The position numbers were made by a program, and so were the translations under genes. DNA of 64,000 nucleotides, taken from contig NZ_JABXKQ010000044.1 of NCBI RefSeq assembly GCF_017114945.1, forward strand, positions 186,001-250,000, written 5' to 3'. This DNA is from Nostoc sp. JL34 (lineage in GTDB: Bacteria; Cyanobacteriota; Cyanobacteriia; Cyanobacteriales; Nostocaceae). Of the stretch, positions 28,382-64,000 are shown piece by piece. The notes beneath the pieces are model-generated. The model ran no database searches and had not been told where the DNA came from. It worked only from the letters and a program-made list of their open reading frames with translations. Within the stretch, counting starts at the first letter, position 1, and every line of letters starts with the position of its first letter.

Positions 28382-28405
28382 CCAATAACATAATTTATAC
28401 TCAAT

Positions 28406-29362: not shown

Positions 29363-29369
29363 CAATAAC

Positions 29370-33122: not shown

Positions 33123-33163
33123 ATCTTCTCTTTCTTACTTAAGTCGTTGATATATTGTTCGCA

Positions 33164-34270: not shown

Positions 34271-34450
34271 AAATTACTTCCTCACTATATTTACCAAATC
34301 GCCAATTGTTTATTGAGCTATGAGAATCCTATTTGATTGTGTAAAAAACCAAGCTGGCTAAAAGCTTACCCTATAGAGGTTTATTTTTTAGTTAAAGTTA
34401 ACAAGATTCAACTAGGATTGCTATAGTATTTTACCTCCTACTTATCAGCT

Positions 34451-35245: not shown

Positions 35246-35405
35246 AATCCAACTCCTAAAATTTAAATCTCAACTCAAATTCAACCTATCTAATTTTGCC
35301 AAAGTTAGCTGATATTAATTGGATAGTAATATCTAGCGATCGCTTTTACATCTGTCTGAAAATAAGTAAAACTTGAAGAAGCTTTGCACTGTTGCAGGCT
35401 CAGTT

Positions 35406-35453
35406 CGGAGATATATTGATAAGTGCATTTAGCCTTCCCACTTAATATCTCCG
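35406..35453. terminator. Bulged hairpin between the two dioxygenase genes
   Basis: CGGAGATAT-(5)-TAAGTG pairs with CACTTA-ATATCTCCG: 15 bp with a 5-base bulge and a 13-base loop. It begins 10 bases after the stop of the PhyH-type gene. It has no T run. It could attenuate transcription from the NRPS genes into the tailoring genes, or protect a processed mRNA end. Confidence 0.5.
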
Positions 35454-35462
35454 AGATGTGGG

Positions 35463-36278
35463 TTAAATCAGAGCTTTGTTAAGTAGAGGCTGTAGTGGTG
35501 TATGGTCGCGGCTCACTAAGAATTCTGGTCTGGGTTGCCCCTTGAAGCTCGGTATATTGTTGATGCTGTTATAAGTGATGATGAGGAGCCTGCGATCGTA
35601 GGGAGAAATGTTGGGTGCCGATCCGTGTACTAAATTACAGTGAAAGAAAAGGACAGAGCCTAAAGGGCCTTTTGGTGCAACGATACCTTTTTCAGTAGCT
35701 AGTTTAGCGATCGTTTCTTTACCGAGGGAGTACTTAAGAGCAGCACTAACATTAGACTTCCAGTCATTTTTTTGGTGATTAACTTCAGATGACTCTATTT
35801 GTCCTAAGTGAACAAGGCTCTTTTTGTGAGAACCTGGAATAAAATACATAGGGCCGTTAAACTCATTACATTCATCCAAGAAAACAGCAACATTCAATGC
35901 TTTAGGGGATGGCATACCATCTTCTCGATCCCAAAATACAAAGTCTTGATGCCACGGCCATATATCTCCTCCAAAAGCTGCTTTAAAGTTGATTTTAAAT
36001 TGGTAGACATATACATCGCTATTGAGAATTTCACAGGCAGATGTTAGGAGGCTAGGGTGTCGAGTCAAGGAATCTAAAATTTCCGTGGTGGCGTGGCATC
36101 CATGAAGAGCGCGCACTGTTTTATTATCCTTTTCTAAAATCTGTCCTGGTATATCTCTTACTATCAAATATTCAACAGTAGCGTGCATTGCCTCAACTTC
36201 TTTTGTTGAGAAAAGCTCTGGGATAAATAGTAGCCCATTTTCTCTATAATCTTCTATTTGCTCTTTGTTTAATTTCAT
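35463..36278 (-). CDS. PhyH/EctD-type Fe(II)/2OG dioxygenase, candidate leucine 5-hydroxylase
   Basis: A 271-residue phytanoyl-CoA-dioxygenase-family protein. Iron ligands are His110-x-Asp112 (WPWHQDFVFW) and His218 (NLVHGSAPN), with Arg229 or Arg230 for 2-oxoglutarate; the layout resembles ectoine hydroxylase. The 4-methylproline pathway needs 5-hydroxyleucine, and a Nostoc punctiforme dioxygenase (LdoA) is known to make it from leucine. This gene or the neighbouring dioxygenase is the natural candidate for that step; I favour this one. A clear GGAGAA ribosome-binding site precedes the ATG. It lies 160 bases after the terminal NRPS gene. Confidence 0.82.
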   Translation of the reverse strand: MKLNKEQIEDYRENGLLFIPELFSTKEVEAMHATVEYLIVRDIPGQILEKDNKTVRALHGCHATTEILDSLTRHPSLLTSACEILNSDVYVYQFKINFKAAFGGDIWPWHQDFVFWDREDGMPSPKALNVAVFLDECNEFNGPMYFIPGSHKKSLVHLGQIESSEVNHQKNDWKSNVSAALKYSLGKETIAKLATEKGIVAPKGPLGSVLFFHCNLVHGSAPNISPYDRRLLIITYNSINNIPSFKGQPRPEFLVSRDHTPLQPLLNKALI

Positions 36279-36438: not shown

Positions 36439-39400
36439 TCATACCCCGTCACCCGTAGTTTCCTGTGCTTCTTCAATACAAGCTTTCAACCGTTCGGCTA
36501 AGACCTGAACATGTGGTTGATTCATCATCGTGACATGGTTGCCTGGGACAAAATGGATATCCACTGGCTCGGTAGAAAACTTGCTCCAGCCCCAAGTCGA
36601 ATCCTTCAAAATCTCAGAAATTACTTCACTATGAGACTCTTCAACTGCGGAAGTTTCGCTGGCCCGCAAGAAGGTAATTCGGATTGGAGAAACCTGTTGT
36701 GGCACATAATTAACTAGAGAGTTAGCTTTGAGCAATTGCACCATATTATTAAGCTGCGTAATTTCATCATCAGGAGGCAAGATATCAACATTTTTTAATT
36801 TTTCTAGAACGTATTTCAGTTGATCTTCCCAAACCAAACATTCAAGAGCATCGTCAGAAATATCTAGGTTCTTTGCGTAAACAATTTCGATTGCGCCTGC
36901 CAATTGAGCTAGCCATTTAACATTATCCCAATCAAAACCTTCGGGCTTTTCCTGATAAAAAGGTGCTGTAGTATCAAGAATGGCAACTAAAGAAACCTTA
37001 TGTCCTTTGCGAAGTAACTGCTGCGCCATTTCAAAAGCTAATTTACCGCCAAAAGAATGGCCTGCTAAAAAATACGGCCCCTGCGGTTGAACAACTAAGA
37101 GTGCTTGAATGTACTGGGCGGCTACATCCTCAACTGGAGTAATTGATTCCCATCCTCCAGAAAAAGCATTTGCTTGGAAACTGTAAAATGGTTGGTCTGA
37201 ACCCAGACAACGCGCTAAGTCATACAAGTAGAAAGGAGTACCAGCAGCTCCTGGAAGGCAAAACAAAGGTGGTTTGGAACCGTTCGGCTGAATTGCTACT
37301 AAGGGAGACCAAATTGAGGAATCCGAATCCGCTTGCACAATAGTTGCCAACTGTTCAATAGTTGGATTTTGGTAAAGGCTGGCTATAGGAATATCTTTAC
37401 CAAACTGCTGTTTAATTTGAGCCATTAAGTAAGGAGTTAAAAGGGAATGACCACCGAGGTCAAAGAAGTTATCTTGTACTCCCACCTTGTCAACTTTCAA
37501 AATTCTTGACCAGATTTGTGCTAATTGCAGTTCTAATTGGTTACGTGGTGCAACAAATTTGTCTGAGTCACCGCTATGTAAATCAAGTATTCTCAATGCG
37601 CGGCGGTCTACTTTGCCGCTAGGAGTTAGGGGCAAGGACTCCAACATCACAAAACCATTGGGTATCATGTACTCTGGCAGCTTTGCTTTGAGGAAATGGC
37701 GCAGTTCGCTAATTGTCGGTGTACAGTGCTGATGCGGCACTATGTAGGCAACTAGGCGCTGATCGCCGGGAGTGTCTTTGTGGGCGATGACACAACATGC
37801 CTCCACATCGCCATGTTGGCTCAGTACTGCCTCTACTTCTCCCAATTCGATCCGGAAGCCTCGCACCTTAACCTGATTGTCGATGCGTCCTAAGTATTCA
37901 ATGTTTCCATCCGGTAAATAGCGTGCTAAATCTCCAGTTTTATACAGGCGGGAGTAGGTGTCAGTGCTAAAGGGATTGGGGATAAATCTCTCAAGTGTTA
38001 ATTCAGGTCGGTTGAGGTAGCCTCGCGCTAAAGGGATACCAGCAATGTATAATTCTCCTGCTACACCGATAGGTATAGGCTGTAGATATTTATCTAAAAT
38101 GTATATCTGTGTATTGGCAATTGGTCGTCCAATGGGAGGAAGTAGCGGCCAAGTCTCCACTGAATTAGTCAGAGTAAAAGTGGTGACTACATGGCTTTCC
38201 GATGGCCCATAATGATTGTGCAAAGTACAATCATCAGTTAATTTGCTTAACCAATGAGAAATGGCAGGAGTAATTTGCAACTGTTCCCCAGCAGTAATGA
38301 TTTCCCGCAAATTACTAGTAAATAATTCACCGCCAACAGCGACTTCAGCTAGTTGTTGTAAGCCAACAAAGGGAATAAACAATCTCTCAACCGCTTTGTT
38401 TTCTATGAAAGCTAACAAAGCCACTGGATCTCGGCGCAATTCCTCCGTAATCAAGATCAATGTACCTCCAGAATACCAAGTAGAGAACATTTCTTGGAAG
38501 GAGGCATCAAAGCTGATTGGAGAAAATTGCAGAGTTTTTGCTCCACGAGAAATTTTCATATTTTCCAGTTGCCACAGGATCAAATTGCAAAGAGCAAGCT
38601 GACTCATGGCTACACCTTTAGGTTTACCTGTAGAACCAGAGGTGTAAATCACATAACCTAAGTTAGTTGCTTGCACATTAGAGATGAAATTGTCCTGACT
38701 AAACTGGGAAATTAATTGCCAGTTAGTATCCAAACAGACAAGTTTTGCTTGATGCTCAGGTAGTTTCTCAATGAGTCGCTGTTGAGTCAACAATATCGAA
38801 ACAGCCGCATCTTCTAACATGAAACTAAGGCGTTCTTGAGGATAGTTTGTGTCAAGTGGCACGTAAGCCCCACCCACCTTAAGAATCCCCAGTAGTCCTA
38901 CGATCATCTCCAGCGATCGCTCCACACAAATACCCACCAACACATCGGCTCCTACGCCCAAAGAGCGCAAGTAGTGCGCCAACTGATTTGCTTTGGCATT
39001 CAACTGGTTGTAAGTCAGTTGTTGATTTTCAAACACAACTGCGATCGCATCTGGAGTACGCTCTACTTGCTCCTCAAACAACTGATGGATACACTTATAC
39101 TTATTTTGAAGATAATCAACTTGAGTGTTGTTCCACTCGACTAATAACTGCTGTTCCTCAGTTGCTGTCAGCAGAGGCAATTGCAAAATTCGCTGCTGTG
39201 GATTAGTAACAATTCCCTCAAGCAATGTTTGAAAATGTCCTAACATTCGAGCGATCGCACCATCATCAAATCGGCTGGTATCATAGTTAATCTTCACCAA
39301 CAATTGCTTACCAGGAGCAGCAATTACAGTTAGCGGATAATTAGTTTGTTCAATGCTGTGAATACTTTCTATAGAGAAACTGTGATTAGGCGATTTTACT

Positions 39401-42400: not shown

Positions 42401-45174
42401 CAACACGTTTGTACATCCTCATATTGGCTCAACCGTGCTTCAATTTCTCCCAACTCGATACGGAAACCACGTATTTTTACTTGGTTGTCAATACGCCCCA
42501 GGTATTCAATTGTGCCATCCGGTAAGTAACGTGCTAAATCACCAGTTTTATAAAGGCGGGAATATAGTTCATTGCTAAAAGGGTTAAGAATGAATTTTTC
42601 TTTTGTCAACTCTGGACGGTTGAGGTAGCCTCTTGCTATCCCTGCACCACCAATGTGCAATTCTCCTGGTACACCCACGGGTACTGGTTGCAGATACTCA
42701 TCTAAGATGTAGATTTGTGTGTTGGCGATCGCGCGACCGATGGGGACAACTTGTCGTTCAATTCCTGCTTTGCAAGTCCAGAAGGTTGCATCAATACAAG
42801 CTTCTGTCGGCCCGTAGAGATTGTGCAAGTTCACATTGAGATTACTTAACACGTTCTCTTCCAGAGCAACTGGTAAGGCTTCACCTCCACAAAAGATTTG
42901 TTTAAGGGAGTGACAAGTTTCGAGTCCTCCTTGTTCTATAAGTATTTGTAACAAAGATGGTACAAATTGAACAGTTGTTACCTGCTGTTGGGCAATTAAC
43001 TTTAACAGGTAAGCAGTATCAGCATGACCTCCGGGTTGAGCTAATAGCAACTGTCCACCTACTAACAAAGGAGCGTAGAATTCCCAAACCGAGGCATCAA
43101 AGCTAAAGGGAGTTTTCTGTAGCACTTTGTCTTTTTCAGTCAGGGGGAATGTTGCTTGCATCCAGGACATGTGGTTGCAAAGGTTGCGGTGAGAAAGCAT
43201 TACTCCCTTAGGCTTTCCGGTAGAACCAGAGGTATAAATCACATAGGCCAAGTTAGCTGCTTGCACAGTAGTGAGGCAGTTCGAGTCTTGGCGGTTTCCG
43301 TCGAGTCGAAACTGCCGAACCCGAAGGGTGATTAGATTGTCTGGATTTGACTGAGAAATAAACTGCCAGTCAGTATCTAAACATATAATCTGCGCTTGAT
43401 GCTGAGGCAACTTCTCTTGGAGTTGTTGTTGGGTCAGTAGGACTGAAACTTGAGCATCTTCTAGCATAAAGCTCAAGCGTTCTTGAGGATAATCTGGGTC
43501 AAGTGGCAAGTATGCCCCACCCGCCTTAAGAATACCTAGTAGTCCCACGACCATTAAGAGCGATCGCTCTACACAAATACCCACCAACGTATCTGGTTTT
43601 ACACCCAAAGACTGCAAGTAATGCGCCAACTGGTTAGCGCGACAATTCAATTGCTGGTAAGTCAGTTGTTGATTTTCAAAGACAACTGCTATAGCATCCG
43701 GAGTACACTCAACCTGCTCCTCAAACAACTCATGGATACACTTATCAAAAGGATATTCTGCTTGAGTCGAGTTCCATTCAACTAATAACTGATGCTGTTC
43801 AACTTGTGTAAGCATTGGCAATTGTGAAATCCGCTCCTTTGGATTAGCAACAATTCCTTCCAACAAAGTCACAAAATGCCCAGTCATCCGCTCAATTGTG
43901 CTGCTATCAAATAAGTCAGTGCTATACTCCCATACACCCACTAATCCAGCACCTGTACTGAGCGTAGTCGTTGGCGAAGCCTCAGCAAAATTAGCAGAGT
44001 TGTGCATTGATAAACTCAAATCAAACTTAGCAGTTGCCCTTTCTGCTGGTAAAGAACTGATAGTTAAGCCAGCAAGCTCTACTTGAGACATAGGCGCATT
44101 CTGGAGTGCAAACATCACTTGGAAAAGTGGCGTATGGCTCAGATTCCGTTCTGGATGCAATGTTTCCACCAGCATTTCAAAAGGCAATTCCTGATGAACA
44201 TAGGCTCCTAGAGCTATTTCCCGAACGTGAGAGAGTAATTGGCTAAAAGAGGGGTTGCCTGATAAGTCAGCACGCATGACTAAGGTATTAACAAAGAAGC
44301 CAATTAATCCCTCAATTTCACTGTGATCGCGGTTGGCAATTGGTGTCCCCACCAAAATATCTGCCACACCTGTGTAGCGGTAAAGTAGGGTATGATAAGC
44401 TGCCAAAAGCGTCATAAAGAGGGTACAGCCTCGCTCCTGGCTCAGTTTTGTCAGTCTATTAGTCAACTCAACTGAGAGTTTAAATTCTTGAGTTGCGCCA
44501 GCGAAAGTCTGTACAGCAGGTCTTGGTCGGTCTGTGGGTAACGACAACAAGGCTGGTGCATCTTTTAATTGTTGTTGCCAGTAACTTAATTGAGTTTGCA
44601 GTACATCTCCTTGCAACCACTCCCTTTGCCAAATGGCAAAATCTGCATATTGAATGGGTAGTGGTGCTAAAGGTGACGGCTCACCTTGAGAATAAGCCTT
44701 GTACAGTGCTGCTAATTCTTGGATAAACACACCCATCGACCAACCATCAGAGACAATGTGGTGCATACACACTAACAAAATGTGTTCTGTCTGGGACAGC
44801 AGTACTAATGTCGCCCTGATTAATGCTTCATTTGCCAGGTCAAACGGAAGAAGTGCTTGTTCTTGCGCTAATTGCTGTGTAGCGATTTCTTGTTCGGCTG
44901 GTGAGAGATGTTGCCATTCAAAAACTGATACTGTCCAATTCGTTTCTGTGTGAATAATTTGAGAAGGTTTTCCATCAACGGTGATGAAGTTGGTGCGTAA
45001 TGCTTCATGGCGATGAATAATTTCTTGCAAGCTTTGTTCTAAGGCTACTTGATTGAGATTGCCTACTAGACGCAAAGCTATAGGTATGTTATAGAAAGCA
45101 CTGTTCGGCTCTAACTGGTCTAAAAACCACAAACGCTGTTGAGCATAAGATAGGGGTAATTCTTCAGTCATCAT
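36439..45174 (-). CDS. NRPS, two modules with epimerase and thioesterase: C-A(Gln)-PCP-E-C-A(Pro-type)-PCP-TE
   Basis: A 2911-residue terminal synthetase. C domain at about residues 1-440 (HHIVSDGWS). First A domain at about 460-960, whose eye-read specificity residues D-A-W-Q-F-G-L-I-D match the glutamine code. PCP with GGDS near 1038. Epimerase at about 1090-1530 (HHLVVDGVSW, EGHGRED, FNYLGQFD), so D-Gln is expected. A DCL-like C domain at about 1550-1990 (HHLLLDGWS). Second A domain at about 2005-2500, code D-A-Q-F-I-A-H-V-V, proline-type. PCP with GGHS near 2573, and a type I thioesterase with GHSFGG near 2708 and the His of GNHVTMM. It releases or cyclises the peptide. Its ATG overlaps the previous gene's stop, and it has no N-terminal docking domain. 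Confidence 0.92.
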   Translation of the reverse strand: MMTEELPLSYAQQRLWFLDQLEPNSAFYNIPIALRLVGNLNQVALEQSLQEIIHRHEALRTNFITVDGKPSQIIHTETNWTVSVFEWQHLSPAEQEIATQQLAQEQALLPFDLANEALIRATLVLLSQTEHILLVCMHHIVSDGWSMGVFIQELAALYKAYSQGEPSPLAPLPIQYADFAIWQREWLQGDVLQTQLSYWQQQLKDAPALLSLPTDRPRPAVQTFAGATQEFKLSVELTNRLTKLSQERGCTLFMTLLAAYHTLLYRYTGVADILVGTPIANRDHSEIEGLIGFFVNTLVMRADLSGNPSFSQLLSHVREIALGAYVHQELPFEMLVETLHPERNLSHTPLFQVMFALQNAPMSQVELAGLTISSLPAERATAKFDLSLSMHNSANFAEASPTTTLSTGAGLVGVWEYSTDLFDSSTIERMTGHFVTLLEGIVANPKERISQLPMLTQVEQHQLLVEWNSTQAEYPFDKCIHELFEEQVECTPDAIAVVFENQQLTYQQLNCRANQLAHYLQSLGVKPDTLVGICVERSLLMVVGLLGILKAGGAYLPLDPDYPQERLSFMLEDAQVSVLLTQQQLQEKLPQHQAQIICLDTDWQFISQSNPDNLITLRVRQFRLDGNRQDSNCLTTVQAANLAYVIYTSGSTGKPKGVMLSHRNLCNHMSWMQATFPLTEKDKVLQKTPFSFDASVWEFYAPLLVGGQLLLAQPGGHADTAYLLKLIAQQQVTTVQFVPSLLQILIEQGGLETCHSLKQIFCGGEALPVALEENVLSNLNVNLHNLYGPTEACIDATFWTCKAGIERQVVPIGRAIANTQIYILDEYLQPVPVGVPGELHIGGAGIARGYLNRPELTKEKFILNPFSNELYSRLYKTGDLARYLPDGTIEYLGRIDNQVKIRGFRIELGEIEARLSQYEDVQTCCVIAREDTTGDKRLVAYVVPHLGQTPTVSQLRSFLSGQLPQYMMPHAFVMLESLPLTPNGKVDRRALPAPDFRGELEVSFVGPRNQTEEMLAQIWAEVLRLEQVGIHDNFFELGGDSILSIQIISRAKQTGLHLTLKQLFAHQTIAELATVENIASVIHIEQGLVTGTLPLTPIQHYFFEQNLQQPHHFNQSFLLSVPSDLKPELLKQVLQQLLVHHDALRLRFTQSESTWQQSESAVTNSVAFSHIDLSALPESEQQTAVETKAASFQASLNLSENLVQVAFFHLGIDKRARLLIVIHHLVVDGVSWRILLEDLQTAYQQLAQGKAIALTAKTTSFKDWSEKLTAYAQSQALKSEVAYWLNESRAAVPLIPIDYTQGANTVTSASTVSVSLNEIETRALLQDVPKAYNTQINDVLLTALVLVLAKWTNSSSVLFNLEGHGREDIVDGVDLSRTIGWFTTIFPVLVELGATENPADALKSVKEQLRAIPNKGIGYGLLRYLSQDAEIAAQLQACGQVEISFNYLGQFDQLLNTSSWMQPACESAGHSQSLQNNRAHLLDINSVITGERLQIEWIYSTNVHQQATIATLAQDFVKTLQGLIAHCSSPESGGYTPSDFSLVKLNQLELDQLLASLGKTNSKNIEDIYPLSPMQQGMLFESLYAPDSGVYFEQLSFTLKGELNVAAFEQAWQQVVARHSILRTAFVWEQLTQPLQIVSRQLDINLNRYDWQQLSVQEQQQQLELFLQSQRKEGFQLNQAPLMSLSLIQLSAGSYQFIWSCHHLLLDGWSTPLIFKDLLYFYQAISQGETVAVQPAQNYRNYIAWLQKQDLTQAEQFWREKLQGFTSPTSLIVDKPSSKRQRLNSSYSEQQIQLTEQATATLQTFVRQHQLTINNLVQATWALLLSRYNQEKDVVFGATVSGRPPSLVGIESMVGIFINTLPVRMQVTDDTQVLALLKDLQTQQVESEQYSYNSLVDIQGWSEVSRGTPLFESIVVFENYPVDEAVKSPNHSFSIESIHSIEQTNYPLTVIAAPGKQLLVKINYDTSRFDDGAIARMLGHFQTLLEGIVTNPQQRILQLPLLTATEEQQLLVEWNNTQVDYLQNKYKCIHQLFEEQVERTPDAIAVVFENQQLTYNQLNAKANQLAHYLRSLGVGADVLVGICVERSLEMIVGLLGILKVGGAYVPLDTNYPQERLSFMLEDAAVSILLTQQRLIEKLPEHQAKLVCLDTNWQLISQFSQDNFISNVQATNLGYVIYTSGSTGKPKGVAMSQLALCNLILWQLENMKISRGAKTLQFSPISFDASFQEMFSTWYSGGTLILITEELRRDPVALLAFIENKAVERLFIPFVGLQQLAEVAVGGELFTSNLREIITAGEQLQITPAISHWLSKLTDDCTLHNHYGPSESHVVTTFTLTNSVETWPLLPPIGRPIANTQIYILDKYLQPIPIGVAGELYIAGIPLARGYLNRPELTLERFIPNPFSTDTYSRLYKTGDLARYLPDGNIEYLGRIDNQVKVRGFRIELGEVEAVLSQHGDVEACCVIAHKDTPGDQRLVAYIVPHQHCTPTISELRHFLKAKLPEYMIPNGFVMLESLPLTPSGKVDRRALRILDLHSGDSDKFVAPRNQLELQLAQIWSRILKVDKVGVQDNFFDLGGHSLLTPYLMAQIKQQFGKDIPIASLYQNPTIEQLATIVQADSDSSIWSPLVAIQPNGSKPPLFCLPGAAGTPFYLYDLARCLGSDQPFYSFQANAFSGGWESITPVEDVAAQYIQALLVVQPQGPYFLAGHSFGGKLAFEMAQQLLRKGHKVSLVAILDTTAPFYQEKPEGFDWDNVKWLAQLAGAIEIVYAKNLDISDDALECLVWEDQLKYVLEKLKNVDILPPDDEITQLNNMVQLLKANSLVNYVPQQVSPIRITFLRASETSAVEESHSEVISEILKDSTWGWSKFSTEPVDIHFVPGNHVTMMNQPHVQVLAERLKACIEEAQETTGDGV
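43275..43316. repeat. Palindromic element inserted in frame in the Gln A domain
   Basis: Imperfect arms GGCAGTTCGAGTC and GAGTCGAAACTGCC flank a short GC-rich loop. The reading adds roughly LRVRQFRLDGNRQDSNCL between the A2-A3 motifs, where sister A domains have nothing. It looks like an insertion of a dispersed palindromic repeat tolerated in a surface loop. Confidence 0.65.
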
Positions 45175-55133: not shown

Positions 55134-55197
55134 ATAATTATTACCTTCATACCGTCAACTAATTCGTAATTCATAATTAATAGCTATTTGATGTCGA

Positions 55198-58100
55198 TCA
55201 TATTGCTATTTCTTCTCTATCAATTGCACCTAAGTTTATATCTGGTTCTGGATGTTGTTTCTCTAGCTTTAGTGCTATTTCAGCTATTGTGGGAGACTCA
55301 AACAAACTTGCGAGAGATAATTTGATATAAAAAATATTTCGTAATCGGGACAAAACCTGAACAGCTACTAAGGAATCTCCTCCCAATTCAAAAAAGTTGT
55401 CATTGATTCCCACTTGCTTGATACCCAAGAATTCTTGCCAGATATCAGCAATTTTTTGCTCAAGTTCATCGCGGGGAGCTATATATGAATTTGGCAAATC
55501 AGGTCTTGAATAGAGTGCAGATAAGTTTTCTGGCTGAAAATTATCCGACTTTCTTTGTAATGAAAGCTGTGATTTTTGGTCAGTCTCATTTTGTCCAAAC
55601 TTTGTGCTAAACGCGACTGGTATAGAAGCTTGAGCCATAATAATCTTATGCTCAAACGCTTCAGTTTCTGGAAAAGCAGCAACTTGGACAAAATCTTGAG
55701 CGCGTAATGCTTCAAACCACTCATTTTTGATAATAAAAGGCTGACCTGGGCTGCGTCTATTATCATCTAAAAGTTTCAACAGCAGACCCCAAGTGATATC
55801 AAAGTCTATTTTCGGCTGAGTAATTTCCCACACTAAGAGGAAACCGCCAGGAGCTAATAAAGAGCGCACATGGTGGAGTGTTTGATCTATGTTCCGAGTT
55901 GCGTGCAACACATTAGAGGCGATGATAATATCAAAGCTAGACTTTTCAAATCCTTGCTCAGTTGGCGACTTGTCTATATCTAGTAATCGATATTCAACAA
56001 ATGGATAGTCCTTAAATTTCTGTTGGGCTTTAGTCAGGAAGCCGCTACCAATATCAGTAAAAGTATAGTTGGTTTGTTTTGAAGGCAACACAGGTAGTAA
56101 TGCTTGCGTAGACATACCAGTTCCCCCGCCGATTTCCAGAACTCTCAGGTGAACTGATGATGGCAATGACCTGACAACTTGTTCCAGGCTTGAGCGCAAG
56201 ATAGAGTTGTAGTAATTTAGTAATCCCAATTCTGAATTTGAACCGTTGTTTTCTTCTTGATAAATCAGTTCATTGAAAAACTCTAAGGGTTCTTGTTCAC
56301 CAACAACAACGGCAGCTAAATTTTCACCACAACGCTGTACTAAATCTACTGTTAGAGATTTAGCAGCCATTCTCACTCTGACTTCTTCTAAAAGTTCATG
56401 AATCAAATCTTGCGAACATGGCACTAGTCCAGTAAATAACCCCTCCTGTTGCTGTAGTTGTCCTTGCACCACTAATATTTGCAACCATCTACACACTAAT
56501 TGTTGATAACGAGGAGTTATATGGCATTGCGTTAACAAATTCTCCAAAGAATACTTTTCTTCGGCATTCTTAAAAGCCCCTAATTGCTTGAATGCAAAGT
56601 TGATGTAGGCTGTACATAAACGATCCAAGCACTGTCTGTTCTCTTGATATGTTAACTCGTTGAGTTCTCCATCTCTAACACTTGCTTGATTCTGGCCTGC
56701 TTCTATGAGCGATGTCCACAATTGTGATGTTGTGGGTAAAGTTTGCAACTGCCCCCCAGTTGTTTTTTGTGGGGGGTCAATCCAATAACGTTGGCGCTCA
56801 AAGGGATAAGTCGGTAAGGGAAGACGATAATATTCCTCCTGACTATAGAATCCAAACCAATCTATATTGACTCCAGCCAGCCAGAGTTGACCTAATGTAT
56901 TGAATAAAACACGAGTATCGGATTGCTTTTCTTGAGGATGACGTACCGAAGTCAACACCGTTTGTGCGGCTGCTTTGTCTGGATGCCTTTTGGCTAATGT
57001 AGTGAGTGTGTGTCCTGGCCCCACTTCTAGTAAGACTTGCTCAGGTGTTGCCAATAATTTCTCTACACCTTGGGCAAACAGCACTGTGGAACGCAGATGT
57101 TGAGCGTAATACTCAGGATTTGTGGCTTGTGTGACTGTAATCCATGTACCAGTCAGGTTGGAAATATAAGGAATTTTTGGGGGATTTAAGGTAACTTTTT
57201 TGACTCGTTCTACAAATGCCTCTAAGATTGGTTCCATCATTTGCGAATGGAAAGCATGGGAAGTATGCAGACGGCGACATTCAACCCCTTGAGTAGCTAG
57301 CTGATTTTGTAGTGCCTCTATTGCTGCTATAGAACCGGAAACGACGCACTGCAAAGGTTGATTAATCGCTGCAACAGAAAGTTCCGATCCTAATAGGGAT
57401 TTTACCTTGTCTGCCGGCAGGGGAACAGAAAGCATTGCCCCACTAGGAAGTTGCTGCATTATCTGTCCGCGTGCTGCTACCAGAGATAAAGCATCTTCTA
57501 GGGAAAAAACTCCTGCTAGAGTTGCTGCTACATACTCGCCAATACTATGACCGATCGCAGCTACAGGATTCACTCCCCATGACTGCCATAATTTAGCTAG
57601 GGCGTATTCAATTACAAAAATAGCAGGTTGAGCGATCGCTGTTTGTTGAAGTTGCTGCGATGCCTCATCAATCTTTTCCTCACTGGGGTAAATAATATGA
57701 CGTAAATCTTGCTCTAGCAAGGGTTTAAGAACTTCCGAGCAATAATCAACTTGTTCTTTAAATACTGTCTCAGTTTCGTAAATTTCCCGCGCCATGTTGA
57801 CATACTGAGAACCTTGACCAGGAAACATAAAGACAATAGACCGTTCTGTAATCTCTGTATAATTGGTAAAAACTTGTTGAGCTGCTAAACTACTGAGATT
57901 TTTGACAGCATCTTCTAAGTCTTGACAAATTAACATCCGTCGATGATTAAAACCCCGGCGACCACTATTGAGCGTATAAGCTACATCGCCTAAGTTGAGT
58001 TCTGGATGCTCTTTTAAATGCGTGATTAAATTATTTGTCGCCTTCTCCAGTGCAGTTGCAGTCTTAGCAGAAAGTACCAAAAGTTGATAATTTCTCCCCT

Positions 58101-59460
58101 GCTCCCCTGCTCCCCTGCTCCCCTGCTCTAACAAAGGAGTTTCTTCCAAAATCACATGAGCATTCGTCCCCCCCATACCAAAAGAACTAACTCCAGCACG
58201 GCGAGGGGTGTTATTTGTTTTCCATTCAGTTAGGGTTGTATTGACGTAAAAAGGACTGTTGGCAAAATCAATTTTGGGATTAGGTGTCTCAAAGTGCAAA
58301 CTAGGAGGCAGCATTTGATGTTGCAGTGCTAATGCAGTCTTAATCAAACCTGCGACACCTGCTGCTGTATCCAAATGTCCAAAGTTGGTTTTTACCGAAC
58401 CAATAGCGCAGAAGCCTTTTTTATCAGTACTTTCAGTAAAAGCTTGAGTTAAAGCTGCGATTTCAATCGGATCTCCTAAAGGTGTAGCGGTGCCATGAGC
58501 TTCAATATAGGAAATTGTTTCGGCATCTACACCAGCTATAGCTTGAGCTTCGCTAATGACTGCTGCTTGACCACTGACACTGGGAGCAGTGTAGCCGACT
58601 TTCATTGCACCATCATTATTGATCGCTGAGCCTTTAATAATTGCATGAATGTGGTCGCGATCGCTTATTGCATCTTTTAATCTTTTCAATACCACAATAC
58701 CTGCACCGCTACCGGCAACAGTTCCTTGTGCTTGAGCATCAAAAACACGACAGTGTCCATCAGGAGAAAGAATCATTTCCTCTTGATACAAATAACCTCT
58801 TTTTTGGGGAATGCTGATAGAAACTCCACCAGCTAAAGCCATATCACATTCACCATTTAATAGACTTTGACAAGCTAAATGAACAGCAACTAAAGAAGTA
58901 GAACAGGCAGTTTGCACATTCACGGCTGGCCCTGTTAAGTTGAGTTTATAAGCAACTCGTGACGGCAAAAAATCTTTATCGTTGGAAATTCCCAATTGGA
59001 GAAGGCTAAATGTCTCTAATAATTGATGATGAGGATAGAGATTATTGAGCAAATAACTATTTATCCCCACACCACCATAAACCCCTATTAAACCGTTGTA
59101 AGTTTGTGGGTTATAACCAGCCTTTTCTACAGCTTCGCAAGCTAATTCTAAAAATAGGCGTTGTTGTGGATCTATTAACTCAGCTTCTTTAGCACTATAA
59201 GTAAAGAAATTTGCATCAAACAATTCAATCTCTGATAAAGCAGCACTAGCTTTCACATAATTAGAATTACTCAGCAAATCTGGAGAAACACCAGATTTTA
59301 TCAATTCTTCATCTGTCAACCAGGAGATAGACTCTACACCATCACGTAGATTTTGCCAAAAAGATTCAATATCTTTTGCCCCTGGAAAGCGCCCAGCAGT
59401 AGCAATTATTGCTATCTCAGAATTGTTTAAATCATTATTATTAACTGAATCTACTTTCAT
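55198..59460 (-). CDS. Type I polyketide synthase: KS-AT-C-methyltransferase-ACP
   Basis: A 1420-residue single PKS module. KS at about residues 14-440 with active Cys186 (VQTACSTS), His in EAHGTATPLGDP and NFGHLDTAAG. A GGGGAGCA-repeat linker lies near 445-455. AT at about 540-860 (GHSIGEYVAA; HAFHS, which usually means malonyl-CoA). A methyltransferase at about 1000-1290 (LRVLEIGGGTGMSTQ, ASNVLHAT). ACP GGDSLVAVQ near 1361, and a short acidic tail DREEIAI that could be the docking peptide for the TubC-like domain of the next protein. No ketoreductase, dehydratase or enoylreductase is present, so a methylated beta-keto unit is predicted. The ATG overlaps the previous gene by 4 bases (ATGA). 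Confidence 0.93.
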   Translation of the reverse strand: MKVDSVNNNDLNNSEIAIIATAGRFPGAKDIESFWQNLRDGVESISWLTDEELIKSGVSPDLLSNSNYVKASAALSEIELFDANFFTYSAKEAELIDPQQRLFLELACEAVEKAGYNPQTYNGLIGVYGGVGINSYLLNNLYPHHQLLETFSLLQLGISNDKDFLPSRVAYKLNLTGPAVNVQTACSTSLVAVHLACQSLLNGECDMALAGGVSISIPQKRGYLYQEEMILSPDGHCRVFDAQAQGTVAGSGAGIVVLKRLKDAISDRDHIHAIIKGSAINNDGAMKVGYTAPSVSGQAAVISEAQAIAGVDAETISYIEAHGTATPLGDPIEIAALTQAFTESTDKKGFCAIGSVKTNFGHLDTAAGVAGLIKTALALQHQMLPPSLHFETPNPKIDFANSPFYVNTTLTEWKTNNTPRRAGVSSFGMGGTNAHVILEETPLLEQGSRGAGEQGRNYQLLVLSAKTATALEKATNNLITHLKEHPELNLGDVAYTLNSGRRGFNHRRMLICQDLEDAVKNLSSLAAQQVFTNYTEITERSIVFMFPGQGSQYVNMAREIYETETVFKEQVDYCSEVLKPLLEQDLRHIIYPSEEKIDEASQQLQQTAIAQPAIFVIEYALAKLWQSWGVNPVAAIGHSIGEYVAATLAGVFSLEDALSLVAARGQIMQQLPSGAMLSVPLPADKVKSLLGSELSVAAINQPLQCVVSGSIAAIEALQNQLATQGVECRRLHTSHAFHSQMMEPILEAFVERVKKVTLNPPKIPYISNLTGTWITVTQATNPEYYAQHLRSTVLFAQGVEKLLATPEQVLLEVGPGHTLTTLAKRHPDKAAAQTVLTSVRHPQEKQSDTRVLFNTLGQLWLAGVNIDWFGFYSQEEYYRLPLPTYPFERQRYWIDPPQKTTGGQLQTLPTTSQLWTSLIEAGQNQASVRDGELNELTYQENRQCLDRLCTAYINFAFKQLGAFKNAEEKYSLENLLTQCHITPRYQQLVCRWLQILVVQGQLQQQEGLFTGLVPCSQDLIHELLEEVRVRMAAKSLTVDLVQRCGENLAAVVVGEQEPLEFFNELIYQEENNGSNSELGLLNYYNSILRSSLEQVVRSLPSSVHLRVLEIGGGTGMSTQALLPVLPSKQTNYTFTDIGSGFLTKAQQKFKDYPFVEYRLLDIDKSPTEQGFEKSSFDIIIASNVLHATRNIDQTLHHVRSLLAPGGFLLVWEITQPKIDFDITWGLLLKLLDDNRRSPGQPFIIKNEWFEALRAQDFVQVAAFPETEAFEHKIIMAQASIPVAFSTKFGQNETDQKSQLSLQRKSDNFQPENLSALYSRPDLPNSYIAPRDELEQKIADIWQEFLGIKQVGINDNFFELGGDSLVAVQVLSRLRNIFYIKLSLASLFESPTIAEIALKLEKQHPEPDINLGAIDREEIAI
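58094..58125. repeat. Four perfect CTCCCCTG octamers inside the PKS gene
   Basis: Tandem 8-bp units encode GSRGAGEQG-like residues in the KS-AT linker (LLEQGSRGAGEQGRNYQ). It is the same octamer family as in the glycosyltransferase gene at 29305-29336, on the opposite strand. Confidence 0.85.
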
Positions 59461-62400
59461 TTCTTACCTTTTTTTTGAGAACGATGCTGTTGTCTAAGTT
59501 GTAATTGTTGATTTCTTAAAGATTTACTATCACTATGAGGTTGAATACGAGAACTCTTTTCTGTAAACGTATCTTCTTGATTGAATTTAGTATTCAAATA
59601 TTGGCTTAAAGTATGTATAGTTGAGTAATTAAACATATCAACTATTGACAGTTGCAAACCAAATCTTTCTTGCAATTGCTGATTAATTTGTACTAGTAGT
59701 AACGAATGCCCTCCTAGTTCAAAGAAATTATTGTAAATTCCTACCTTTTCTAGTTCCAGCGCTTTTTGCCAAATGCCAGCAATGATTTTTTCTATTTCTG
59801 TATTTGGGATTACATAATCTGAGAGTTCCTGATGTAAATCTGGGTCAGGTAGAGCGCGACGGTCTACTTTGCCGTTAGGTGTCAGGGGTAAGGACTCCAG
59901 CATCACAAAAGCGGCTGGCACCATATACCCAGGCAGTTTATTAGAAAGGAACTGTCGTAGTTCGCTGGTTGTGGGTGTTGCCTGTGAATGCGCTACTACG
60001 TAGGCGACTAAGCGTTTATTACCTGGAATTTCTTCACGGGCTATGACACAACATGTCTGCACATCACCATGTTGGCTCAGTATTGCTTCAACCTCGCCTA
60101 ACTCAATGCGGAAACCGCGTATTTTTACTTGGTTATCAATTCGCCCCAAGTATTCGATGTTGCCGTTTGGTAGGTAACGCGCCAAATCTCCAGTTTTATA
60201 TAATTTACTCTTTCCTATCTCCTCAAACGGATTGGAGATGAATTTCTCTTGTGTCAACTCTGGACGGTTAAGGTAGCCTCTGGCTAACCCCACACCACCG
60301 ATGTGTAACTCTCCAAGCACACCAATCGGCACTGGTTGTAAATTTTCGTCTAAAATGTAGACTTGTGTATTGGCGATCGCTCTACCAATAGTTATTTTCT
60401 CGTCATCATTGCATTTTGCGTTGCCTGTGGCTAGCGTAGCTATCGTGGCACAGACAGTAGCTTCTGTTGGCCCGTAGGCGTTGAAGAAGTTTCTGCCAGC
60501 AGACCATTGCTTGATTAATTCAGCAGAACAGGCTTCTCCGGCTACAATTACTGTTTGCAGTGCCGGAAGTTCCGACTCAGGCATAACTGCTAACGCCGAT
60601 GGTGGTAGCGTGATATGCGTAATAGAATAATCACGTAATAGCTTAATTAACGGCTTTCCTGGCAATAGAGAGTCTTTTGTTCCCAGGTAAAGTGTTGCAC
60701 CTGACCCCAAAGCCATCACGACTTCCCAGATAGAAGCATCAAAACTGAAAGAGGCAAATTGAAGAATGTGACTATCCCAAGTCAAGCCAAAAGTTTGAAT
60801 CTGAGCTTGAGCTAAGTTGCATAATCCCTTATGCTCAACCATAACGCCTTTAGGTCTGCCTGTTGAACCGGAAGTATAAATCACATTAGCTAGATGAAAA
60901 GCTCTGGCTCCACTGACAGGATTACCTTGATTGTTTTGGGTAATTTGTGACCATACCTCATCTAAGCAGACAAGTTTCGCCCCAGAATTAGGCAATCTAT
61001 CAACGAGTCGCTGCTGAGTTAACAGTAACGAAACTTGAGCATCTTCTAGCATGAAGCTCAAACGCTCAGTTGGGTAATCGGGGTCAAGCGGTACATACGC
61101 TCCACCCGCCTTGAGAATCCCTAACAGGGATACCACCATTTCTACTGAACGTTCTATACAAATGCCAACCAACACATCTGGTTTTACACCCAGAGTTTGC
61201 AGGTAATGCGCCAATTGATTCGCACGACAATTTAATTCCCGATAGGTCAAATGCTCCTGCTCAAATACCACCGCTACTGCTTCGGGGATGCGCTCAACAA
61301 AGCTCTCAAACAACTGATGGATACACTTATCTTGGGGATAGTCTGCTTGAGTATTGTTCCATTCAACTAATAACTGCTGTTGCTCATATTCTGTAAGTAT
61401 TGGCAATTGGGAAATTTGTTGCTGTGGATTAGCCACAATACTTTCAAGCAAGGTCACAAAATGACCAGTCATTTGCTCAATGGTGCTGCCATCAAACAAA
61501 TCAGTGTTATATTCCCACCACCCCACCAGTCCAGTAGTAGTGTTCTCTATTAATAAACCCAAATCAAACTTAGCAGTTGTCCCTTGTACCACTAATGGAC
61601 TGACAGTCAACCCAGCAAGCTCTACTTGCTGCATGGGTGCATTCTGGAGGGAAAACGCCACTTGGAACAGTGGTGTGTGGCTAAGATCCCGTTCTGGCTG
61701 CAATGCTTCCACCAGCATTTCAAAAGGCAAGTCCTGATGAGAGTATGCATCCATTGCCATTTCTCGAACGCGACCAAGTAATTCGCTAAAGCTAGGATTG
61801 CCTGCCAAGTTGGTACGCATCACTAAAGTGTTGACAAAAAAGCCAATTAACCCTTCAATCTCACTGCGATCGCGGTTAGCAATTGGTGAACCAACCAAAA
61901 TGTCTGCTTGTCCTGTGTAGCGATAAAGTAGAGTATCAAATGCTGCCAACAGCGTCATAAAGAGGGTACAACCTTGCTCTTGGCTTAGTTTTACTAATTT
62001 ATCGGTTAACTCAACTGACAGTACAAACTCCTGATGTGCGCCAGCGAAAGTCTGCACAGCAGGTCTTGGTCGGTCTGTGGGAAATGACAATAAAGCTGGT
62101 GCATCTTTTAGTTGCTGTTGCCAGTAACTCAGTTGGCTTTGGAGTACATCTCCTTGCAACCAGTTTCTCTGCCAAATTGCAAAATCTGCGTATTGAATCG
62201 GCAGTGGCGCTAAAGGTGACAACTGGTCTTGAGAATAAGCATCGTACAGTGCTGCTAGTTCTTGGACAAACACATCCATTGACCAACCATCAGAGACAAT
62301 ATGGTGCATACATACACCCAAGACATATTCTGTCTCATTAAGCACTACTAATGTTGCTCTGATTAATGCTTCACTTGCCAAGTCAAAAGGTTGAATAGCT

Positions 62401-64000
62401 TGTTGTTGAGCTAATTGCTGTGCGGCTATTTCTTGTTCGCTTGTGGATAAATGCTTCCAGTCAACAACTGAGACTGTCCAATTCGTTTGTGTATGAATGA
62501 TTTGAGAAGGTTTTCCATCAACGGTGATAAAGTTGGTGCGTAACGCTTCGTGGCGATGAACAATTTCTTGTAAGCTTTGTTCTAAGGCAACTTGATTGAG
62601 AGTTCCGACTAGACTTAAAGTTAGGGGTATGTTGTAGAAGGCACTGTTCGGCTTTAACTGGTCTAAAAACCATAGCCGTGTTTGAGCAAATGACAGTGGT
62701 AATTGTGCATCCTTTTCCCTTGGTAAGATGGGTGGGGAAGTTAGTTCTAAGTCCTGTTGCTGTAACTGCCCAATCGATTGCGCCAATTCGGCTACTGTCG
62801 CTTTTGCAAACAACTCACGTAATGTTAGTTCTACTTTAAAGCTGGTGCGAATGCGTGAAAGTAGTTGGGTTGCTAGTAGCGAATGTCCCCCAAGTTCAAA
62901 GAAGTTATCATGTATGCCTACCTGCTCCAGTTTCAAGACTTGTGCCCAAATTTGTGCCAGCATTTCTTCAATTGGCGTACGCGGGGCAACAAATTTTTCT
63001 AGCAGTTTGCTGTCTAACTCTGGTTTTGGCAGTGCGCGGCGGTCTACTTTGCCGTTAGATGTCAGGGGCAAGGACTCCAGCAGTACAAAGGCTGATGGCA
63101 CCATGTATTCGGGTAGCTTCTTTTGCAGGAAACAGCGAACTTCACTGAGTAATAAACTCGAACTGCTCCAGGTTGGTTTTACACAATCGCTGACTAAAGT
63201 GCTACCAGACTCCTGTCGTTGGTACTGGTTTATGGATGGTCGTCTGGCATAGATATTGTAGAGTCCAGTATTTTCTAGTACAGCATCCTGCTCTATAGTT
63301 AGGTCGTATCCATGTTCTTTTAGCAGGTCTGCAATCTCCTCCAACCTACCGTTAATGTTATGAACCTCTACAACTATCTGCTGAATCTTTTGCCAATCTT
63401 TTTGTTGGATGCCAGAAAGCACATCCCGCTCACTTTTCTCCACGTCGATTTTTAGTAAATCGATCTTCTCAACGCCATGCTCACCCATCACCTCAGAAAT
63501 TGTTCTTAAGTGGCAAGTGAATTGCTGACTCTGCAATTTCTCTGCTAGCAGTTCATCAATTGTCTGACTAGATACTCCTGTGTCATTTTCTCCAATATTT
63601 TGTTGTTTGAACAAAAAGGATTTAAGTACCTCTCGCTCTTGATCGGTATCTGCAAAGCGCCCGGAAATGACGGAAACTTGAGGATAATATGTAAAAATGT
63701 CACTCTTTGTCTCGCTGGAAAGGCCAAGATTAAATAGCTTTACATTTAAGCCATAGCCCTCAGTATTTAGGCGTAACAGATCAAAAACAGGTGGAATTGG
63801 CTCAAATGCGTAAATAGAAACATCTTTACATCTTTGACCTACGAAGAGTGCGAACAGACCGATATTGGCACCCACATCAAAGATACAATCCCCTTCATTG
63901 ATGGTAATACCATGTTTTAAATAAGCTTGTTCCTCCCAAAGTTCTTTGTAAACGAATTCTGTTTCGTTTTTATTCAAATGGGCAATCACCGTGCCATTTG
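59457..64000 (-). CDS. NRPS (partial): ...A/FkbM methyltransferase/A-PCP-C-A(Phe)-PCP
   Basis: The frame is open to the window edge (codons continue beyond the GTG at 63989), so only the C-terminal 1514 or so residues are seen. About residues 1-250 form an FkbM-type methyltransferase (GDCIFDVGANIGLFALFVGQ, YAFEPIPPVFDLLRLN, IDLLKIDVEKSERDVLSGI). Right after it comes the end of an A domain (KKLPEYMVPSAFVLLESLPLTSNGKVDRRALP), so the methyltransferase interrupts the A domain C-terminal lobe. Then PCP GGHS near 367, C about 425-860 (HHIVSDGWS), A about 880-1385 with code D-A-W-T-I-A-A-V-C (phenylalanine), PCP GGHS near 1426 and a basic tail. It feeds the PKS, whose start overlaps its TGA. Confidence 0.9.
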   Translation of the reverse strand, partial: NGTVIAHLNKNETEFVYKELWEEQAYLKHGITINEGDCIFDVGANIGLFALFVGQRCKDVSIYAFEPIPPVFDLLRLNTEGYGLNVKLFNLGLSSETKSDIFTYYPQVSVISGRFADTDQEREVLKSFLFKQQNIGENDTGVSSQTIDELLAEKLQSQQFTCHLRTISEVMGEHGVEKIDLLKIDVEKSERDVLSGIQQKDWQKIQQIVVEVHNINGRLEEIADLLKEHGYDLTIEQDAVLENTGLYNIYARRPSINQYQRQESGSTLVSDCVKPTWSSSSLLLSEVRCFLQKKLPEYMVPSAFVLLESLPLTSNGKVDRRALPKPELDSKLLEKFVAPRTPIEEMLAQIWAQVLKLEQVGIHDNFFELGGHSLLATQLLSRIRTSFKVELTLRELFAKATVAELAQSIGQLQQQDLELTSPPILPREKDAQLPLSFAQTRLWFLDQLKPNSAFYNIPLTLSLVGTLNQVALEQSLQEIVHRHEALRTNFITVDGKPSQIIHTQTNWTVSVVDWKHLSTSEQEIAAQQLAQQQAIQPFDLASEALIRATLVVLNETEYVLGVCMHHIVSDGWSMDVFVQELAALYDAYSQDQLSPLAPLPIQYADFAIWQRNWLQGDVLQSQLSYWQQQLKDAPALLSFPTDRPRPAVQTFAGAHQEFVLSVELTDKLVKLSQEQGCTLFMTLLAAFDTLLYRYTGQADILVGSPIANRDRSEIEGLIGFFVNTLVMRTNLAGNPSFSELLGRVREMAMDAYSHQDLPFEMLVEALQPERDLSHTPLFQVAFSLQNAPMQQVELAGLTVSPLVVQGTTAKFDLGLLIENTTTGLVGWWEYNTDLFDGSTIEQMTGHFVTLLESIVANPQQQISQLPILTEYEQQQLLVEWNNTQADYPQDKCIHQLFESFVERIPEAVAVVFEQEHLTYRELNCRANQLAHYLQTLGVKPDVLVGICIERSVEMVVSLLGILKAGGAYVPLDPDYPTERLSFMLEDAQVSLLLTQQRLVDRLPNSGAKLVCLDEVWSQITQNNQGNPVSGARAFHLANVIYTSGSTGRPKGVMVEHKGLCNLAQAQIQTFGLTWDSHILQFASFSFDASIWEVVMALGSGATLYLGTKDSLLPGKPLIKLLRDYSITHITLPPSALAVMPESELPALQTVIVAGEACSAELIKQWSAGRNFFNAYGPTEATVCATIATLATGNAKCNDDEKITIGRAIANTQVYILDENLQPVPIGVLGELHIGGVGLARGYLNRPELTQEKFISNPFEEIGKSKLYKTGDLARYLPNGNIEYLGRIDNQVKIRGFRIELGEVEAILSQHGDVQTCCVIAREEIPGNKRLVAYVVAHSQATPTTSELRQFLSNKLPGYMVPAAFVMLESLPLTPNGKVDRRALPDPDLHQELSDYVIPNTEIEKIIAGIWQKALELEKVGIYNNFFELGGHSLLLVQINQQLQERFGLQLSIVDMFNYSTIHTLSQYLNTKFNQEDTFTEKSSRIQPHSDSKSLRNQQLQLRQQHRSQKKGKK

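What the first reader, a model, noticed from the sequence alone, without database searches (positions are those of the whole stretch)
36439..64000. Hybrid NRPS-PKS cluster with a predicted backbone that differs from nostopeptolide
Seen: five assembled modules plus a partial one in colinear order on one strand, with TE at the end. My reading of specificity residues gives ...X-Phe-[C-methylated beta-keto C2]-Pro*/MePro-Thr-Ile-D-Gln-Pro*. Known: the nostopeptolide cluster has the same gene-type order (NRPS-PKS-3 modules-2 modules+TE-nosE-nosF-ABC) but other residues (Leu-acetate, Leu, Gly, Asn, Tyr, Pro). Inference: a sister assembly line that makes an undescribed or rarely described 4-methylproline peptide.
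Basis: partly seen in the sequence, partly recalled or inferred. Interest (0 to 1): 0.85.

Follow-up and report, generated by a model that had tools for sequence, protein, structure and literature searches.

The report
Gene cluster for nostopeptolide L
This Nostoc gene cluster reads, building block by building block, as the assembly line for nostopeptolides L1-L4, peptides that have already been isolated, so the backbone is not new, although close relatives lack the methylproline genes and may make undescribed variants.

Summary
The assembly line continues 13 kb beyond the window: PKS1 (KS-AT-DH-cMT-KR-ACP), NRPS1, PKS2 (KS-AT-cMT-ACP), NRPS2, NRPS3-TE, then PhyH, a WelO5-like oxygenase, nosE, nosF and an ABC exporter.

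Read in order it gives 2-methyl-2-enoyl / Thr / O-Me-Ser / Phe + C-methylated keto C2 / Pro-type / Thr before a dehydrating-type C domain / Ile / Gln with E / Pro-type / TE. Published nostopeptolides L1-L4 are MHEA[Thr-OMeSer-PhePr-MePro or Pro-Dhb-Ile-Gln-Hyp or Pro] (PMC6835634). All nine positions agree, so the finding's own refutation criterion is met.

New detail: three Nostoc genomes (XA010, LEGE 12450, NMS4) carry PKS1 at 94-95%. The two with the whole line lack the methylproline cassette and have other A domains at modules 6 and 8, so they should make an undescribed congener. PhyH orthologues co-occur with an Ala236 variant of the Pro pocket, suggesting that PhyH supplies hydroxyproline. 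No product was observed.

The parts
59457..64000 (-). NRPS1 (NosA-like), 3' part inside the window; the whole gene is 59457-70427 (3656 aa). Modules 1-3: Thr (DFWNIGMVHK), Ser with embedded FkbM O-methyltransferase (DVWHISLIDK), Phe (DAWTIAAVCK). Module 3 is inside the window with its C domain at 61368-62705. Upstream and outside: PKS1 70424-77176 (KS-AT-DH-cMT-KR-ACP)
55198..59460 (-). PKS2 (NosB-like), KS-AT-cMT-ACP, no KR/DH/ER found by Pfam: C-methylated beta-keto C2 unit on Phe (PhePr/Amopa)
   Evidence: 94-97% identical in XA010, LEGE 12450, NMS4
45171..55133 (-). NRPS2, modules 4-6: Pro-type DVQFIAHAVK (MePro/Pro), Thr DFWNIGMVHK, Ile DAFFLGVTFK; TubC_N docking domain at the N-terminus
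47043..48377 (-). C6, condensation domain of the modified-amino-acid (dehydrating) type, proposed to turn the module-5 Thr into Dhb
   Evidence: best PDB match McyA 8jbr (500 bits), then AmbE 7r9x (217 bits); 23-26% identical to the other C domains of the cluster, 17% to E; of 30 C6-like loci, 25 had a readable upstream A code and 24 of these are Thr or Ser
36439..45174 (-). NRPS3, module 7 Gln DAWQFGLIDK with E domain (40555-41904), module 8 Pro-type DAQFIAHVVK (Hyp/Pro), TE
35463..36278 (-). PhyH-family 2OG dioxygenase, proposed L-proline hydroxylase supplying Hyp to module 8
   Evidence: Pfam PF05721; PDB matches include GriE 5nch and EctD 3emr; co-occurs with Ala236 Pro-type codes
34451..35245 (-). 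WelO5-like 2OG oxygenase, proposed LdoA (L-leucine 5-hydroxylase), first step to 4-MePro
   Evidence: PF22814; directly upstream of nosE in NMS8, NIES-2108, G140 and G025 and 2.7 kb upstream in Peltigera 210A, at 75-91%; no match in XA010, LEGE 12450 or NMS4
33164..34270 (-). nosE-like zinc dehydrogenase
   Evidence: 95-96% in NMS8, NIES-2108 and Peltigera 210A
32301..33122 (-). nosF-like pyrroline-5-carboxylate reductase
   Evidence: TIGR00112 above cut-off
30145..32181 (-). nosG-like ABC transporter
   Evidence: 95-96% in XA010 and LEGE 12450
32240..35420 (-). methylproline cassette (WelO5-like, nosE, nosF), present here and absent between PhyH and the ABC gene in XA010 and LEGE 12450
51900..53050 (-). 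divergent tract, module 4 A domain (72-88% to XA010 in a ~96% backbone)
43850..47350 (-). divergent tract, module 6 A domain into C7 (core 46-66%): Ile here, Tyr-type code in XA010 and LEGE 12450
37450..39150 (-). divergent tract, module 8 A domain (54-82%): DAQFIAHVVK here, DAHIITHVVK in XA010 and LEGE 12450

Best explanation
The cluster makes nostopeptolides of the L type. PKS1 extends a butyryl starter once, C-methylates, reduces and dehydrates it to 2-methylhex-2-enoyl. NRPS1 adds Thr, Ser (O-methylated by the embedded FkbM domain) and Phe. PKS2 adds a C-methylated keto C2. NRPS2 adds 4-methylproline or Pro, Thr (dehydrated to Dhb by C6) and Ile. NRPS3 adds Gln (epimerised) and Hyp or Pro, and the TE closes the lactone on the first Thr. 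The WelO5-like enzyme, NosE and NosF make 4-MePro from Leu; PhyH makes Hyp from Pro. Shown here: domain order, pocket codes, gene content and the match to the published structures. Inferred: every catalytic step, the butyryl starter, the ring position, the LdoA and proline hydroxylase roles, and that the strain produces the compound.
For: Nine of nine positions, starter included, match the published nostopeptolide L sequence. The published MePro/Pro and Hyp/Pro variation falls on exactly the two Pro-type modules. Unusual features match too: an FkbM methyltransferase inside the Ser A domain for O-MeSer; PKS1 with DH, cMT and KR and no ER for a 2-methyl-2-enoyl; C6 like McyA and AmbE C domains for Dhb. 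Masses computed from the published sequence are 1033.55-1063.56, inside the reviewed range of 1033-1080, with L4 at its lower end. Code calibration: NIES-2108 codes read Ser-MePro-Leu-PKS-Leu-Gly-Asn-Tyr-Pro, the nostopeptolide A1 order.
Against: No product was observed and the host strain is unnamed. The original paper (Liu 2014) was not readable, so the structure comes from a review. Module 4 (DVQFIAHAVK) lacks the Leu-Ala (or Val-Ala) ending seen at methylproline-type modules of the family, such as DVQFIAHLAK in NIES-2108, so MePro loading there is inferred. PKS1 has no loading domain, its DH motif has Asn for Gly and its KR has His at the usual Tyr position; whether both are active was not tested. 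The E domain implies D-Gln, which the review does not state.
Confidence: 0.9

Rival explanations
1. A sister assembly line making an undescribed 4-methylproline peptide.
For: Residues differ from nostopeptolide A; the listings and the passages I read show no paper assigning a gene cluster to nostopeptolide L.
Against: The residue set equals nostopeptolides L1-L4 at every position.
Confidence: 0.04
2. A close congener of nostopeptolide L, such as 4-MePro at both Pro-type sites, 3-hydroxy-4-methylproline at module 8, or a changed starter because DH or KR of PKS1 is inactive.
For: Both Pro-type pockets carry a Val-to-Ala change against the Pro consensus DVQFIAHVVK (A330 in M4, A236 in M8); PhyH and the MePro cassette are both present; the PKS1 DH and KR motifs depart from consensus.
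Against: Ala236 tracks with PhyH also in genomes where the cassette was not found (XA010, LEGE 12450, G150, G215), which fits Hyp rather than MePro at module 8; the published L1-L4 have MePro only at position 4 and the full MHEA starter.
Confidence: 0.12
3. A minutumamide or nostopeptolide KVJ3 type cluster.
For: Shared Phe + C-methylated ketide unit, nosE/nosF, and a starter PKS before the NosA-like gene as in minutumamides.
Against: Five NRPS modules after PKS2, against modules 4-7 on nosC in KVJ3 and fewer on minD; module 2 is Ser + O-methyltransferase; no CAL (AMP-binding) domain found in PKS1 by Pfam.
Confidence: 0.01

Closest known systems
Nostopeptolides L1-L4 (Nostoc sp. UK2aImI; Liu et al. 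2014, not read; structure from review PMC6835634, section 6 read in full)
   Same: Starter acid, all eight residues, O-methylation, methylated Phe-ketide, Dhb, MePro/Pro and Hyp/Pro variation
   Different: No gene cluster for it seen in the listings; production by this strain untested
Nostopeptolide A1 / nos cluster (Nostoc sp. GSV224, not held; NIES-2108 used as a stand-in)
   Same: NosA-, NosB-, NosC/D-, NosE-, NosF- and NosG-like genes (gene names from PMC12184294)
   Different: Extra starter PKS1, three modules in NRPS1, other residues, extra PhyH
Nostopeptolide KVJ3 and minutumamides (PMC12184294, parts 1-4 of 6 read)
   Same: Phe + C-methylated beta-keto unit, nos-type genes, evolution by module and A-core exchange
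   Different: Fewer modules after the PKS; Hmp; other starters
Nostoc sp. XA010 and LEGE 12450 clusters (L082-L087), with NMS4 in pieces
   Same: Same gene order from PKS1 to PhyH and ABC; PKS1 and NRPS1 94% at protein level, PKS2 to NRPS3 about 96% at DNA level outside the tracts
   Different: No WelO5L-nosE-nosF; Tyr-type module 6 (the NMS4 contig reads Gln there); DAHIITHVVK module 8; Pro code at module 4

Membership tests
Nostopeptolide L assembly line | Starter PKS with the domains for a 2-methyl-2-enoyl unit | tested here: met
   PKS1 KS-AT-DH-cMT-KR-ACP, no ER; DH and KR motifs depart from consensus, activity not tested
Nostopeptolide L assembly line | Thr, Ser with O-methyltransferase, Phe, then C-methylating PKS without reduction | tested here: met
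   codes; FkbM domain and PKS2 MT
Nostopeptolide L assembly line | Pro-type modules at positions 4 and 8 | tested here: met
Nostopeptolide L assembly line | Genes for 4-MePro (nosE, nosF homologues) | tested here: met
Nostopeptolide L assembly line | Gene for hydroxyproline | tested here: inconclusive
   PhyH is a candidate by co-occurrence; no activity test
Nostopeptolide L assembly line | Thr module followed by a dehydrating-type C domain at position 5 | tested here: met
   the dehydration itself not tested
Nostopeptolide L assembly line | Ile, Gln and terminal TE | tested here: met
Nostopeptolide L assembly line | Compound detected in the strain | not testable with these tools
   needs LC-MS/MS
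Nostopeptolide A | Ile/Val-Ser-MePro-Leu-acetate-Leu-Gly-Asn-Tyr-Pro | tested here: not met
   codes; NIES-2108 shows the A-type order instead
Nostopeptolide KVJ3 / minutumamide | Seven or fewer amino-acid modules | tested here: not met
   eight NRPS modules here
[quoted passage not shown]

The most novel reading that the evidence does not exclude
The nostopeptolide L line exists in two natural states: one with the three-gene methylproline cassette (this window), and one without it but otherwise about 96% identical (XA010, LEGE 12450). The two also differ in three A-domain tracts, so the second state makes an undescribed congener, MHEA[Thr-OMeSer-PhePr-Pro-Dhb-Tyr-Gln-Hyp] (predicted [M+H]+ 1100.53, or 1084.54 with Pro). 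PhyH plus an Ala236 Pro pocket is the hydroxyproline supply-and-loading pair in these peptides.
Probability: 0.6. Interest if true: 0.45.

Novelty: already known. Interest (0 to 1): 0.28.

Why it matters
It ties a complete gene cluster to a peptide family (nostopeptolides) reported to block uptake of microcystin and nodularin through OATP transporters (PMC6835634); the searches showed no cluster assigned to the L type. It gives a candidate gene for hydroxyproline, whose incorporation was called unclear in PMC7524897 in a sentence that follows nostopeptolides L1-L4 (passage); for the related heinamides an enzyme named LxaN has since been proposed (PMC8471579, passage). The sister clusters without the cassette give a clean pair for testing how precursor supply and A-domain choice change together.

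Tried and rejected
Rejected: that the window line simply gained methylproline by importing the cassette together with a new module 8 A domain. In the A8 core, residues about 2166-2465, the window is 73-93% identical to NIES-2108, G140 and G150, while XA010 is only 41-72% identical to them, so at module 8 the XA010/LEGE lineage looks like the changed one. Direction of the cassette change is unresolved.

Rejected: that PhyH is the leucine hydroxylase LdoA. It is close to GriE, whereas LdoA and GriE share only 14% (PMC5676206, passages), and PhyH is kept in XA010 and LEGE 12450, where nosE and nosF were not found. I had no LdoA sequence to compare with the WelO5-like protein.

Rejected: nostoweipeptin, nostopeptolide A, KVJ3 and minutumamide (see membership test). 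Led nowhere: paper searches for the PDB entries 7DZZ/7E01/7DT0/8H7T and for O-methylserine in cyanobacterial NRPS papers; NCBIfam gave no family for the WelO5-like protein. No clear donor was found for the module 6 or module 4 tracts (best 84% and 82% DNA over about 1.1-1.2 kb; shorter stretches reach 88%, among them the cluster's own module 8 for module 4, and the sister clusters for the first 640 bases of the module 6 query).

Results against my readings: genome G201 has a PhyH orthologue (86%) with no Ala236 code seen. NMS4, a fragmented MAG, has no PhyH at E <= 1e-50; its module 8 was not seen, and it is counted among the DVQ genomes without PhyH. Only one locus of each genome was read. 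The NMS4 contig reads a Gln code after C6 where XA010 and LEGE 12450 read a Tyr-type code; a misjoined contig cannot be excluded.

Full report
WHAT IS THERE. The window lies at positions 186001-250000 of a 300,950-base contig of a 7.8 Mb genome in 184 contigs. The four large ORFs named in the finding are open and colinear on the - strand. I fetched the DNA to the right. NRPS1 begins at 70427 in extended window coordinates and is preceded by a 2250-aa PKS gene (70424-77176). The order of transcription is PKS1 > NRPS1 > PKS2 > NRPS2 > NRPS3 > PhyH > WelO5-like > nosE-like > nosF-like > ABC exporter.

DOMAINS AND CODES. Pfam gives PKS1 KS-AT-DH-cMT-KR-ACP without ER; NRPS1 C-A-T, C-A(FkbM methyltransferase)-T, C-A-T with an N-terminal TubC docking domain; PKS2 KS-AT-cMT-ACP; NRPS2 three C-A-T modules with a TubC docking domain; NRPS3 C-A-T-E-C-A-T-TE. 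In PKS1 the DH motif has Asn for Gly and the KR has His at the usual Tyr position, judged by recalled patterns. Nine-position specificity codes (the tenth, Lys, assumed) are Thr DFWNIGMVHK, Ser DVWHISLIDK, Phe DAWTIAAVCK, Pro-type DVQFIAHAVK, Thr DFWNIGMVHK, Ile DAFFLGVTFK, Gln DAWQFGLIDK, Pro-type DAQFIAHVVK. The assignments of codes to amino acids are recalled. They are calibrated inside the family by the Nostoc punctiforme NIES-2108 cluster, whose codes read Ser, DVQFIAHLAK, Leu, PKS, Leu, DILQLGLIWK, DATKIGEVGK, DASTIAAVCK, DVQFIAHVIK. That is the order Ser-MePro-Leu-acetate-Leu-Gly-Asn-Tyr-Pro of nostopeptolide A1.

THE PRODUCT IS KNOWN. A review (PMC6835634, section on peptides exclusive to Nostoc read in full) gives nostopeptolides L1-L4 of Nostoc sp. 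UK2aImI as MHEA[Thr-O-MeSer-PhePr-MePro(L1,L2)/Pro(L3,L4)-Dhb-Ile-Gln-Hyp(L1,L3)/Pro(L2,L4)], MHEA being 2-methylhex-2-enoic acid. The cluster matches at all nine positions. PKS1 has the domains MHEA needs (one extension, C-methylation, KR, DH, no ER). The FkbM domain inside the Ser A domain fits O-MeSer. PKS2 with a C-methyltransferase and no reduction fits PhePr. The two Pro-type modules sit exactly where the published variants differ. Masses calculated from the published sequence are 1063.56, 1047.56, 1049.54 and 1033.55, within the reviewed range of 1033-1080. The original paper (Liu et al. 2014) was not available to me.

DEHYDROBUTYRINE. C6 (47043-48377) is only 23-26% identical to the other C domains of the cluster and 17% to the E domain. 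Its best solved relatives are McyA (8jbr, 500 bits) and AmbE (7r9x, 217 bits). PMC7524897 (passages) reports that the C domains at Dhb positions of laxaphycin, hassallidin and nodularin lines fall in the modified-amino-acid clade, to which microcystin C domains are assigned. Of 30 C6-like loci taken as the best of 70 matching genomes among 217, an upstream A code could be read in 25: 23 Thr, 1 Ser, 1 other. For comparison, 46 of 221 A codes in the loci are Thr or Ser (25 and 21). The loci include the window and its near relatives, so they are not independent.

SISTER CLUSTERS. PKS1 has orthologues at 94-95% in 3 of the other 216 genomes of the family (XA010, LEGE 12450, NMS4); the next best is 53% over the whole length (the list is cut but sorted by score). 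XA010 and LEGE 12450 carry the line complete, with PhyH and the ABC gene at 94-96%; WelO5-like, nosE and nosF were not found in the fetched stretches, and a DNA search of these two genomes with the cassette gave no match. In NMS4 one search found only weak short matches, the best listed over about 100 bases at the spacer discussed under noticed items. Over 30-60 kb of the window, the DNA is about 96% identical to XA010 except in three tracts (module 4 A, 51900-53050; module 6 A into C7, 43850-47350; module 8 A, 37450-39150), the cassette (32240-35420) and smaller dips: 86-88% at 49800-50100, 82% near 41550 (where XA010 and LEGE 12450 differ as much), 76% in the spacer at 36300. XA010 and LEGE 12450 are 85-100% identical to each other in the three tracts. 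Their codes are DVQFIAHVVK, DASTIAAVCK and DAHIITHVVK where the window has DVQFIAHAVK, DAFFLGVTFK and DAQFIAHVVK. The NMS4 contig reads DAWQFGLID after C6, so module 6 may differ three ways. Direction is unresolved. At module 8 the XA010 lineage looks changed, because the window agrees better with other clusters. The predicted XA010 product has no methylproline and Tyr in place of Ile.

METHYLPROLINE GENES. nosE- and nosF-like genes are 95-96% and 86-88% identical to those of NMS8, NIES-2108 and Peltigera 210A, and the WelO5-like gene is 75-91%. Of 22 genomes with a PKS2 relative, 14 have a match to the WelO5-like protein; XA010, LEGE 12450 and NMS4 are among the 8 without. Its place upstream of nosE makes it the likely LdoA; PMC5676206 (passages) states that LdoA starts the Nostoc pathway and shares 14% identity with GriE. 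I could not compare it with LdoA itself.

HYDROXYPROLINE. PhyH resembles GriE and ectoine hydroxylases. Orthologues at 70% or more were found in 9 of 217 genomes, own included. In 30 genomes for which one A8-like locus was read, 4 had the Ala236 codes DAQFIAHVV or DAHFIAHVV and all 4 have PhyH at 89% or more (own genome included). Of the 26 with DVQ codes, 24 lack PhyH at 70% or more (NMS4 among them), and the other 2 are XA010 and LEGE 12450, which have a separate DAHIITHVV module. G189 and G190 add two more DAHFIAHVV with PhyH at 81% and 74%. G215 has Gln-Thr-C6-like-DAHFIAHVV, the order Gln-Dhb-OHPro of scytocyclamide A; its PhyH lies about 14.5 kb from the start of that NRPS match and about 4 kb from another NRPS match. 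G201 has PhyH (86%) with no such code seen. PMC7524897 called the route to OHPro in these peptides unclear; PMC8471579 says LxaN may do this for heinamides (passage). Whether PhyH is LxaN was not tested.

VERDICT. A correct and careful observation of a real cluster, with a product that is already described. What is added here is the assignment of this cluster to nostopeptolide L, the sister line without methylproline, and a testable hydroxyproline pair.

Noticed in passing
window 27446-29988: Glycosyltransferase genes and an hpsU-type hormogonium polysaccharide acetyltransferase (29407-29988, NCBIfam NF038307 above its cut-off) lie next to the exporter; window 8001-30100 has no blastn match in the fetched stretches around the XA010, LEGE 12450 and NMS4 clusters.
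   Followed up: partly
window about 34317-34426, between the WelO5-like gene and nosE: A stretch of about 100 bases has many 72-81% matches scattered over family genomes, which looks like a dispersed intergenic repeat.
   Followed up: no
G215:C1:3704405-3705211 (L144) and 3719729-3730000 (L145): A laxaphycin-like order Gln-Thr-C6-like-DAHFIAHVV with a PhyH orthologue (90%) about 14.5 kb from the start of that NRPS match; the PhyH match contains one stop codon.
   Followed up: partly
L151 (NMS4, G163:C297): The A domain after the C6-like domain reads a Gln code, unlike the Tyr-type code of XA010 and LEGE 12450 and the Ile code of the window; short MAG contig of 7514 bases.
   Followed up: no
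L007, L008, L020, L044: Nos-type clusters with two Thr-type codes then Leu before the PKS and a long gap between modules 2 and 3, like the O-methyltransferase module here; products not identified.
   Followed up: no
G000:C119: A further large NRPS locus of the same genome (open frames 3757 and 4763 aa) holds a stretch 84% identical to the Ile-type module 6 tract and a Pro-type A core at 77%.
   Followed up: no
L139 (G025), positions 11331-16439: PhyH, a WelO5-like gene, nosE, nosF and a second WelO5-like gene (42%) lie together, more than 400 kb from the NRPS genes with A8-like domains.
   Followed up: no
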